Positions 26,677 through 43,586 of a stretch of 64,000 bases of DNA are shown here, one piece after another. The DNA lies in NCBI GenBank assembly GCA_031282505.1, contig JAITDP010000005.1, positions 62,001-126,000 of the forward strand. Direction: 5' to 3'. The notes below the pieces were generated by a model, which saw only the letters and a list, made by a program, of their open reading frames with translations, did no database searches and was not told where the DNA came from. The position numbers were made by a program, and so were the translations under genes. This DNA is from Mycoplasmataceae bacterium. Its GTDB lineage: Bacteria; Bacillota_I; Bacilli_A; Mycoplasmatales; Mycoplasmoidaceae. Positions within the stretch are counted from its first letter, which is position 1. Every line of letters starts with the position of its first letter.

Positions 26677-27591
26677 ATGTCAAATATTCTTGCGATTGAA
26701 ACCAGTTGCGATGATACATCAATCGCTTTGGTTAAGGATGATAAAATAGTTAGTTGTGCTGATTCATCGTCAATTAAAGAGTACAGCCAATATGGTGGAA
26801 TTGTTCCCGAATTAGCATCAAGAATGCACGAACAAAACATTGTAAAAGTTTTTGAAGAGTGTATAAAAGATACTCCTATCGAATCAATCACTCACATTGC
26901 TTATACATCACATCCCGGTCTCCCCGGAAGTCTGCATGTTGGAAAGGTTTTTGCAAAGACAGTATCTTTTTTATTAGATAAACCATTGCTGGCAATAGAT
27001 CATATGATGGGTCATGCATTTAGTTACGCCATTGATAAAAAACAAATAATTAAATTTCCTTTATTAAGTCTTGTAATTAGTGGTGGAAATACTATTTTAT
27101 ATAAATTTGAGTCATTAACAGAATATACAATCATCAATAAAACTACCGATGATGCTGTTGGTGAATGCCTTGATAAAATTGGTAGAGCACTAGAACTGCC
27201 ATACCCTGGTGGAATTAGTTTAGACAAACAATATGATAGCAGTAAAATTATTCCAACAATACCACATTTGGAATATTCAAGGAATTTTAGTTTTAGTGGA
27301 ATAAAAAGTTTTTCACACACTCTTATAAATAAAAAAAATATTGATAAAATTGCAATTGGAAGTTCGTGTCTTGAATGGTGTGTAGATGATATTATCATCA
27401 AACTACTTGGTTATTCTAAACAATACAATATTAAAAATATTGCTATAGGCGGTGGGGTCGCAGCTAATAATTTATTAACCTCTAAATTAAAAAAAATCAA
27501 AGAAATAGATATACATATAACCGAAAAAAAATGCTGTGGTGACAATGGAGCAATGATAGGTTTTTATGCTTCTCTAATTACAAATGAATAA
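26677..27591 (+). CDS. tsaD: tRNA N6-adenosine threonylcarbamoyltransferase TsaD
   Basis: 304 residues. It completes t6A37 synthesis on ANN-decoding tRNAs together with TsaB and TsaE. Visible: N-terminal ILAIETSCDDTS, the metal-binding HMMGH motif (about 108-112), SGGNT, DDAVGECLDKIGRALELPYPGG, SFSGIKS and the C-terminal GGGVAANN ... DNGAMIG with the metal-binding Asp. It is slightly short but complete. The ATG at 26677 is preferred over upstream in-frame codons because it lies 6 nt from TATAAT and begins the family N-terminus. Its partner TsaB is fused to LspA at 41835-42917. Confidence 0.95.
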   Translation: MSNILAIETSCDDTSIALVKDDKIVSCADSSSIKEYSQYGGIVPELASRMHEQNIVKVFEECIKDTPIESITHIAYTSHPGLPGSLHVGKVFAKTVSFLLDKPLLAIDHMMGHAFSYAIDKKQIIKFPLLSLVISGGNTILYKFESLTEYTIINKTTDDAVGECLDKIGRALELPYPGGISLDKQYDSSKIIPTIPHLEYSRNFSFSGIKSFSHTLINKKNIDKIAIGSSCLEWCVDDIIIKLLGYSKQYNIKNIAIGGGVAANNLLTSKLKKIKEIDIHITEKKCCGDNGAMIGFYASLITNE

Positions 27592-41008: not shown

Positions 41009-41809
41009 TTAAATTTTTAAAATTCGCTTAATTGCATTAATCTCTTCATTTTTACCAAGTTCGTTAAAAATACGTTTAAGTTCTGAAATTTTTGAAAATT
41101 TTGTATCATTATTAATTTCTAAATATTTAAGAGCTTTATTTTTAAATTTATCTTCATAACTAAAAGAAGAAGCTAATTTTTTTCAATCATTTACATATCA
41201 AATAATTGGATAATGGTGGTTTTTTCAAATTCCTTTAAGTATTTCAAATTGAATAATTTTAGCGTTTGTGATGAATTTAGGATTTATTAAACTAAGTATG
41301 TATGACAGTTTTGCATCAAGAACAATGATATTACGCAATGAAAATTTAGCAATTCTAAATCCTGTATCGATATCTGGTCCTAAAAAGTCAAGTCTGTCTT
41401 CGTCTGCTAAATTAGGAGTAATAAGAGTTAAGTAACTTCATTTATTTTTATCTTTTCCTAAATCATTAACAGCAACACCTGAGAATAATGTTGTTTTAAA
41501 CGCAAGCTTAACTTTAATATTGTTAGGTGACATTTTTTTAATATAAGTATTAGATTTTACACATATTTGGTTAATTGAAGCAAAAGATTGTAATAAATCT
41601 TTTTTACTATCTACTTTTTTGTAAAAAAGCAATTCATCACCAAGTGACTTCCATAATTTACAATCTTTTCATGTGTTTGTTGCAATATGAAAAACATCTT
41701 TATATATATTTGTAAAAAGTTCAGCTCAATCTCGATCGTATGTTTTATACAAAGTGGAATTTTCGATATCTAAGCTTAAATATAAATAAAAGCCTGCTGT
41801 CTTTTTCAT
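41009..41809 (-). CDS. class III nucleotidyl cyclase-like protein (putative)
   Basis: 266 residues with several UGA Trp codons. The first ~165 residues follow the cyclase homology pattern. YLSLDIENSTLY carries Asp-14 (metal site A) and KSLGDELLFY carries Asp-58 (metal site B), 44 residues apart as in class III cyclases. After a beta-strand pair (VKLAFKTTLFSGVAV) comes FLGPDIDTGFRIAKFS, like the G-x-D-V-N-x-A-x-R-L substrate segment, with the Arg kept and Asn replaced by Asp. The C-terminal ~90 residues are a basic helical region with no recognised domain. The gene follows the LspA-TsaB fusion by 25 bp on the same strand. It could instead be an inactive cyclase-fold protein. Confidence 0.55.
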
Positions 41810-41834: not shown

Positions 41835-42917
41835 TTAGATAGTTTTTATGTAATTTGGTTCAAAAGTCTTATCAACTTTTTTAAAATATTCAATGCGATT
41901 TATAAGATTTTGGAATATATCAATTTTATGATAGTCTTGGATGATTTTAATTTTATATAAATTTGCTAGTTTTTCTATAGATGGATAATCAATAATTGTG
42001 GTTGGCTTAATTTGTTTATTATTAAGAAATATTGCAGTATAAAATTTATTCCCTCTTGCGTCAAGGATTGAAACACATTCATTTGTTGCTTGCAATGTCA
42101 ATGAATCAATTGCATATATATCTAATTTATTAATTGATGCCCATGTCTTCGCTATGATAGCACCTACGCGTACTCCAGTAAAACTTCCAGGACCACTTGT
42201 AAGATATATTGATTTAATCTCTTTTTTATTAACTTTTGAAATCTTTAATATTTTATTTATGTGTTCAACAACCAAATCTGTTAGATTATTATGAGTTGGG
42301 ATTGATTTACAAGCAATAATTGTTTTATTTTGAAATAAACAAAGATTGCATTTTTTTTGTGTAGTATCTATAAATAAAGAAATAGGAATATTATGATTTG
42401 GTTTATGTTGGAAACCACTTGCTAATATGTAAATGTTTTTTCCACAAAAAATTCCACAAAAAATTACTGAGCTTGTACAAACGAAAGCATCAGGAAAATT
42501 GAATATAGCATTTCATACTAAGTATTTTGATTGGAAATAATCAATTACGCCATTTCCAATATCTTTTTGAACTAATGCATCACTAAAATTGAATATTCCA
42601 CTACTAAAAATTATGAAAAATAACATAACATAATATCAATCAGAAAATATGCATATTGCTAAAAAAAATACAACAAGGCATATTGTTCCTTGTATTGTCC
42701 TCATAACAAATGGGTAATCTTCACCAAAACTAAAAGCAGAACCTTGATTCATTATTATGTTTATGTGAATAAGTAAATTTTGGTCTCCTCAAGGTCCTAA
42801 CCCTTGCTTTTGACATCACAAATTCATAGTTAAACTAGGGATAATAACTATTAGTAAGGCGATAGGAAAAAACCTTACATTTTTATATATTTTTTTTCAT
42901 GATATTTTTAATGACAT
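41835..42917 (-). CDS. LspA-TsaB fusion protein (signal peptidase II + t6A synthesis subunit)
   Basis: One uninterrupted 360-residue frame (UGA as Trp); I checked every codon from 42917 to 42276 for TAA and TAG and found none. Residues 1-165 are LspA: four hydrophobic segments, NQGSAFSFG (about 57-65), FNFSDALV with catalytic Asp-113, and IFNFPDAF with catalytic Asp-143. A ~10-residue linker (SGFQHKPNHN) leads to TsaB: PISLFIDTTQKKCNLCLF (about 178-195), LTSGPGSFTGVRVGAIIAKTWA and ILDARGNKFYTAIF. No ATG, GTG or TTG lies at the TsaB domain start; only ATT codons could begin a separate protein. LspA has both ends in the cytoplasm, so the fused TsaB would face the right compartment. Confidence 0.85.
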
Positions 42918-42935
42918 ATAATTTATAATAATTAT
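42918..42935. promoter_or_regulatory. 18-bp divergent promoter, lspA-tsaB / membrane protein
   Basis: Only 18 bp between two ATGs. Plus TATAAT (42924-42929) ends 6 nt before the ATG at 42936. On the minus strand TATTAT would end 7 nt before the fusion gene. The two -10 elements overlap. Confidence 0.6.
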
Positions 42936-43586
42936 ATGAGTGATAAAATAAACGAATTAGGTGAAAACGGCGAATTAGAGTCATCTTCTCCTATTTCTGG
43001 AACTGTAAAAAAAGAAGATATTAATATTAATAAAAATATTGGAAGTTTTGGAGACAACGTTGATACGTCGTCAAATGCTTTTGAAGATCCTGTTTCTGAT
43101 ACCATAGAAAAGAAAAAAATAAAAATTAATTTTGAAAAATTTAATACATTTAAAAATTTCAGTAATACAAAATGAGGAAAAGTTAAAAGTGTATTAGACA
43201 GATACCTTAGCAATTCGTTATCATATAAAATTATTTGAGCTATATACGCTGGTATACTAGCTATTGCTATCACTTTATCAATTTCTTTTATTGTAATTAT
43301 TGATCGAAATTTAGGATTACATGATCATAATTACAACAATATTAAAGCTATGGTTGACACTGGTTTAACTGGAGAAATTATGTCATATATAGTCTTAGGT
43401 CTTCCTATTATTCCTTTATTCTTTTTATTTATTTGCTGATTAGTACAAATAAATGGTGTTGTAAAATCTTTGCGTTTCCACTTGTTTGTAATTTTTACTT
43501 TAATAATTCTTTGTTTAGTTTTAATACCTTCAACAGTTGTTTCATCAATTTATATTCATTATTCTTCTATTGAAACTTTTCAATAA
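42936..43586 (+). CDS. membrane protein with acidic N-terminal region, unknown function
   Basis: 216 residues with UGA as Trp. Not recognised. The first ~85 residues are soluble, rich in Asp, Glu, Ser and Asn, then basic (KKKIKINFEKFNTFKNF). Three hydrophobic segments follow at about 100-125, 150-172 and 180-203. It overlaps trmL by one base (TAATG), so both are translated from one message. Confidence 0.75.

What the first reader, a model, noticed from the sequence alone, without database searches (positions are those of the whole stretch)
41835..42917. In-frame fusion of signal peptidase II (LspA) to the t6A protein TsaB
A single open frame of 360 codons carries a complete four-TM LspA with both catalytic aspartates, a ~10-residue linker and a complete TsaB-like domain. 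I read every codon across the junction and found no TAA or TAG. There is no ATG, GTG or TTG at the TsaB domain start. LspA topology (both ends in the cytoplasm) would place TsaB correctly. This would tether tRNA threonylcarbamoyl-adenosine synthesis to the membrane next to lipoprotein processing, a combination I do not know from the families. The alternative is separate TsaB initiation at an ATT codon.
Basis: partly seen in the sequence, partly recalled or inferred. Interest (0 to 1): 0.8.

Follow-up and report, generated by a model that had tools for sequence, protein, structure and literature searches.

The report
Lipoprotein peptidase fused to tRNA-modification protein
In one group of tiny gut bacteria (eight species, at least seven of them apparently from termite guts), the membrane enzyme that trims lipoproteins and a helper protein for a universal tRNA modification are encoded as one chain; this is a real inherited gene fusion seen nowhere else in our searches, though it probably arose by gene loss rather than because the two jobs belong together.

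Summary
Read on the minus strand with TGA=Trp, window 42917-41835 is one 360-codon frame: a four-TM LspA (Asp113, Asp143), an 11-residue linker and a complete TsaB. It is neither an assembly artefact nor a one-off. The same in-frame fusion (35-42% identity) occurs in 8 of 36 species of this genus. These form one clade in RpoB, TsaB and LspA trees. It was absent from 262 other genomes of the order and from a sample of about 390 genomes of the phylum. None of the eight has ATG, GTG or TTG at the TsaB start. Relatives carry lspA-rluD-tsaB-rimI as separate genes. One relative has lost rluD from the locus and has lspA and tsaB overlapping as TAATG, suggesting the route: rluD deletion, overlap, frame fusion. 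AlphaFold gives two confident ordinary domains joined by a flexible linker. Best reading: a fixed, probably non-adaptive gene fusion giving a bifunctional protein with TsaB tethered on the membrane's cytoplasmic face. A functional link between lipoprotein processing and t6A is unproven; translation and activity were not tested.

The parts
41835..42917 (-). LspA-TsaB fusion gene, 360 codons, code 4, ATG start at 42917-42915, stop at 41837-41835
   Evidence: orthologous fusions; AF2 model
42417..42917 (-). LspA (signal peptidase II) domain, residues 1-167; four TM helices; catalytic D113 and D143; Arg after the first Asp is Ala here
   Evidence: TIGR00077 E 1.6e-10, below its cut-off; A1 profile hits LspA 6RYO at 1.2e-8; separate model matches 5DIR and 6RYO/6RYP with probability 1.00, TM about 0.65
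42384..42416 (-). linker, residues 168-178, lower confidence (block 161-170 pLDDT 77), no ATG, GTG or TTG
41838..42383 (-). TsaB domain, residues 179-360, GPGSFTGVR motif at 242-250
   Evidence: TIGR03725 95.4 bits against a cut-off of 69.3; Foldseek TsaB 6N9A and 6S84
42381..42383 (-). ATT codon (Ile179) at the position of the start Met of unfused TsaB
   Evidence: codon table; TTT, TGT and CAG in G008, G018 and G030
26677..27591 (+). tsaD, the t6A transferase partner of TsaB, at a separate locus
   Evidence: PF00814 219.7 bits; one TsaD in each of the eight fusion genomes
42936..43586 (+). divergent membrane protein gene, start codon 18 bp from the fusion's ATG; neighbour also in G002, G009, G016, G018

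Best explanation
It is a true gene fusion fixed once in the ancestor of an eight-species clade of host-gut Mycoplasmatales (at least seven apparently from termites). SHOWN: one open frame conserved across deep divergence; both halves have their family folds and key residues; it is the only TsaB found in each genome and the only LspA found in seven of eight. INFERRED: ancestral lspA-rluD-tsaB lost rluD, lspA and tsaB came to overlap, and a frame shift plus loss of the lspA stop joined them. LspA sits in the membrane with both ends in the cytoplasm, and its C-terminus carries TsaB on a short flexible linker. TsaB does its normal job there, pairing with TsaD for t6A, so the t6A complex becomes membrane-tethered as a by-product. 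The fusion is tolerated because both are cytoplasm-facing and tethering does no harm.
For: Eight orthologous full-length fusions with no TAA or TAG; both Pfam families above curated cut-offs in all six other fusions scanned; monophyly in RpoB (SH-aLRT 100), TsaB (98) and LspA (94) trees. TsaB has no other copy in any fusion genome. Lgt, the enzyme upstream of LspA, is present in 8 of 8, and lipobox proteins are seen in fusion species L063 and L064, with one candidate in the window's own genome. Unfused relatives keep lspA-rluD-tsaB-rimI. G014 lacks rluD at the locus and has a TAATG overlap. Confident two-domain model. Other unrelated fusions in the genus argue for a neutral cause.
Against: No RNA, protein or activity data. 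The window's own LspA half is divergent: no PF01252 hit at E 0.1, TIGR00077 below cut-off, a long branch in the LspA tree, and Ala in place of the Arg after D113. TsaC was found in only 2 of 8 fusion genomes, so t6A synthesis in the clade is not assured. Proteolytic separation of the halves cannot be excluded. All fusion genomes are incomplete MAGs (74-91%).
Confidence: 0.78

Rival explanations
1. Selected coupling: the fusion was kept because a membrane-anchored t6A complex, or co-regulation of TsaB with LspA, is useful (for example t6A-modified tRNA near membrane-bound translation).
For: Single origin and retention in all eight sampled descendants over deep divergence (RpoB identity to the window 46-69%). 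In G008 TsaC, another t6A enzyme, is also in frame with a multi-TM protein.
Against: No known functional link between LspA and t6A; unrelated fusions in sister lineages (LspA-RluD, TsaC-RpiB) suggest frequent neutral fusion; the G008 TsaC case is one genome.
Confidence: 0.12
2. The chain is made as a fusion but cut in the linker, releasing soluble TsaB.
For: Flexible linker of low confidence; linker sequence varies between species.
Against: No conserved cleavage site in the junction alignment. LspA active sites face the other side of the membrane (general knowledge of LspA).
Confidence: 0.2
3. TsaB is also or mainly started internally at ATT (Ile177 or Ile179) or another non-AUG codon.
For: ATT occupies the ancestral start position in 5 of 8 species.
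Against: TTT, TGT and CAG at that position in G008, G018 and G030; no Shine-Dalgarno-like site in the 60 bases upstream in the seven species scanned; ATT is a common Ile codon in AT-rich genomes; LspA would still carry TsaB.
Confidence: 0.08
4. Sequencing or assembly artefact, or pseudogene.
For: MAG source; long LspA branch in the window species.
Against: Eight separately assembled genomes share it with conserved motifs.
Confidence: 0.02

Closest known systems
LspA / signal peptidase II (Pfam PF01252, NCBIfam TIGR00077; PDB 5DIR, 6RYO)
   Same: Four TM helices plus beta-cradle, both catalytic Asp, NxG and FNxxD motifs; Lgt partner in the genome
   Different: Carries a C-terminal TsaB in the same chain; the window copy falls below curated score cut-offs and has Ala after the first catalytic Asp
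TsaB / YeaZ (NCBIfam TIGR03725; PDB 6N9A, 6S84, 1OKJ)
   Same: Above cut-off, GPGxxTGxR motif, TsaB fold, single TsaD partner in the genome
   Different: No start codon of its own; N-terminus continues a membrane protein; no TsaE found above cut-off (its absence is reported for Pneumoniae-group Mollicutes, PMC4014445)
lspA-rluD-tsaB-rimI gene order of related Mycoplasmatales
   Same: Same genes at the same locus
   Different: rluD is gone from between lspA and tsaB, and the two are one gene
LspA-RluD in-frame fusion in sister species G007, G015, G017, G020
   Same: LspA extended at its cytoplasmic C-terminus by the next gene of the same operon
   Different: Partner is a pseudouridine synthase; separate clade; internal ATGs remain

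Membership tests
LspA (signal peptidase II) | Two catalytic Asp in conserved motifs | tested here: met
   D113 and D143 invariant in 14 aligned LspA
LspA (signal peptidase II) | Four-TM LspA fold | tested here: met
   Model pLDDT 91.1; Foldseek 5DIR and 6RYP probability 1.00, TM about 0.65
LspA (signal peptidase II) | Curated HMM cut-off | tested here: inconclusive
   Window copy: no PF01252 hit, TIGR00077 41.1 against 73.95. Six other fusions pass PF01252
LspA (signal peptidase II) | Lgt and lipoprotein substrates in the genome | tested here: met
   Lgt 8 of 8; lipobox proteins in L063 and L064, one candidate in the window genome at L213 4205-4873
LspA (signal peptidase II) | Cleaves prolipoproteins | not testable with these tools
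   needs an assay
TsaB | Curated HMM cut-off | tested here: met
   TIGR03725 95.4 against 69.3 bits
TsaB | GPGxxTGxR motif | tested here: met
   GPGSFTGVR at 242-250; kept in the other fusions except G008, which has GPGGFTGVK (motif as given in PMC9654439)
TsaB | TsaB fold | tested here: met
   Foldseek top hits are TsaB, TM to target 0.6-0.7
TsaB | TsaD partner present | tested here: met
   One TsaD in each of 8 fusion genomes
TsaB | Rest of the t6A pathway (TsaC) present | tested here: inconclusive
   TsaC found in 2 of 8 fusion genomes against 25 of 28 relatives; MAGs incomplete
TsaB | Supports t6A synthesis with TsaD | not testable with these tools
   needs an assay

The most novel reading that the evidence does not exclude
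The clade deliberately holds its t6A machinery on the membrane: TsaB through LspA in all eight species, and TsaC through a multi-TM protein in at least one of them, making tRNA modification a membrane-linked process.
Probability: 0.08. Interest if true: 0.8.

Novelty: new variant of a known kind. Interest (0 to 1): 0.5.

Why it matters
Two essential, functionally unrelated proteins have been one polypeptide for the whole history of a clade, so TsaB (normally soluble) must work while attached to the membrane, or be cut free. That is a natural test of whether the TsaB-TsaD complex tolerates tethering. The locus also shows, in living relatives, the likely steps from separate genes to overlap to fusion in a reducing genome. 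It warns against reading every gene fusion as evidence of functional partnership.

Tried and rejected
Plus-strand and table 11 readings: full of stops. Assembly artefact: rejected by seven other genomes. ATT start: disfavoured by three non-start codons. TsaE: the weak PF02367 hit in G000 lies in an open frame with helicase-like ATPase motifs, not a TsaE. TsaC downstream of lysS, as in G018: not found at lysS in the other fusion genomes for which a lysS locus was read (G000, G002, G008, G009, G013, G030). Literature searches for LspA-TsaB and LspA-RluD fusions found nothing relevant; the library lacks many subscription papers. A paper search for the termite hosts found nothing, so the host assignment rests on isolate names and my knowledge.

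Full report
CHECK. The reported frame is real but lies on the minus strand and needs the Mycoplasma code (TGA=Trp). Window 42917..41835 gives 360 aa with five TGA codons read as Trp. The genome is a 501 kb, AT-rich (26-30% GC) MAG. The window carries a 16S gene and many mollicute housekeeping genes.

DOMAINS. NCBIfam finds TsaB (TIGR03725, 95.4 bits, cut-off 69.3) at 181-308 and LspA (TIGR00077, 41.1 bits, cut-off 73.95) at 13-152. Pfam sees only the TsaB half in the window copy. In six other fusions scanned, both PF01252 and PF00814 are above their cut-offs in one chain. The profile of the eight fusions hits solved LspA (6RYO, 1.2e-8) and TsaB (3R6M, 6.7e-10). AlphaFold2 with 29 sequences gives mean pLDDT 92.4: TM helices at 16-38, 69-89, 94-115 and 141-167, linker 168-178, TsaB strands from 179. 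Foldseek matches the full model to TsaB structures and the separate LspA half to LspA structures only (probability 1.00; next hit 0.18). The two catalytic Asp (113, 143), N57, D126-Y127 and N140 are invariant in fused and unfused relatives. The Arg that follows the first Asp in most relatives is Ala in the window and His in G008.

CONSERVATION. Among 60 relatives and then all 36 held species of the genus, eight have the fusion in one open frame: G000 (window), G002, G008, G009, G013, G016, G018 and G030. The seven besides the window also appear in GTDB contigs as 'Mycoplasmataceae bacterium' MAGs with isolate names Kf353, Po218, Cc175, Nm470 (three) and Zx50. From my own knowledge these look like termite-gut MAGs; no paper held here confirmed it. 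The order search (298 genomes, of which 36 are this genus) found no further fusion. A phylum sample of 392 genomes found no other match at 1e-60.

SINGLE ORIGIN. The RpoB tree puts the eight in one clade (SH-aLRT 100). TsaB-domain and LspA-domain trees also keep them together (98 and 94; 24 ungrouped rows are not counted in that test, and in the TsaB tree the two Mycoplasma outgroups fall beside G030 with support 83). RpoB identity to the window species is 46-69%, so the junction has stayed open for a long time.

JUNCTION. Unfused TsaB begins M(x)LFIDTT. In the fusions the Met position is ATT in five species, and TTT, TGT and CAG in G008, G018 and G030. No Shine-Dalgarno-like motif was seen in the 60 bases upstream in the seven species scanned. 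Some species have an in-frame ATG, GTG or TTG further upstream (for example G009 at -16), but none is shared. Because lspA has no stop of its own, internal starts could add free TsaB but could not give free LspA.

HISTORY. Most other genus members have lspA, an RluA-family pseudouridine synthase (PF00849), tsaB and usually rimI in a row. In G012 and G001 tsaB lies elsewhere. In G014, rluD is gone from the locus and lspA's TAA overlaps tsaB's ATG as TAATG. G014 groups near the fusion clade in the RpoB tree, but on long branches, so whether its rluD loss is shared or independent is open. Most fusion genomes have one PF00849 gene where most relatives have two, consistent with loss of the operon copy. 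The simplest path is rluD deletion, then overlap, then a small frame shift. I infer this; it is not shown.

FUNCTION. Each fusion genome has one TsaD and no other TsaB, and Lgt. Lipobox proteins occur in fusion species, with one candidate in the window's genome within about 313 kb examined. LspA with both ends in the cytoplasm (established for the family) would leave TsaB in the cytoplasm on a tether. I therefore take both halves to do their usual jobs. The window's LspA half evolves fast, so its activity in this species is less certain. TsaC was found in only 2 of 8 fusion genomes against 25 of 28 relatives (Fisher p 0.001, not corrected for shared ancestry). Incomplete MAGs, divergence or loss could explain this, and I leave it open.

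ADAPTIVE OR NOT. The same genus contains an LspA-RluD fusion (G007, G015, G017, G020), a TsaC-RpiB fusion (six species) and, in G008, TsaC in frame with a multi-TM protein. Frequent fusion of neighbouring genes makes a neutral origin the default. A purposeful membrane location of t6A synthesis is possible but unsupported.

NOVELTY. Both families are well known. The combination was not found in the papers searched or elsewhere in the genomes searched. I call it a new variant (a new domain fusion) of known kinds.

Noticed in passing
L151:1031-2386(+), L023:237-1499, L030:155-1510, L027:222-1511: LspA-RluD in-frame fusion (420-451 aa) in G007, G015, G017 and G020 at the same operon, a different fusion from the window's; both Pfam domains above cut-off in L151.
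   Followed up: partly
L170:1045-2046(-), L171, L172, L176, L177, L187: TsaC fused at its C-terminus to a RpiB-like ribose-5-phosphate isomerase in G007, G020, G017, G031, G015, G034 (PF01300 plus PF02502, confirmed by Pfam for L170 only).
   Followed up: partly
L165:1489-3060(-) (G008): TsaC in one 523-aa frame with an N-terminal multi-TM protein (PQ-loop-like by eye), no ATG at the TsaC start, three TGA in a row at the junction; the same species has LspA-TsaB.
   Followed up: partly
G000, G002, G009, G013, G016, G030: No TsaC found in six of eight fusion genomes although TsaD and TsaB are kept; unexplained.
   Followed up: partly
window 41009-41809(-): 266-aa protein directly downstream of the fusion with no Pfam hit; LDIENST and LGDELLF motifs look nucleotide-cyclase-like by eye.
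   Followed up: no
window 42918-42935: Only 18 bp separate the start codons of the fusion and its divergent neighbour, so promoters must overlap or transcripts be nearly leaderless.
   Followed up: no
G016:C32:20139-20480: A second, partial LspA-like match in one fusion genome; could be a paralogue or contamination.
   Followed up: no
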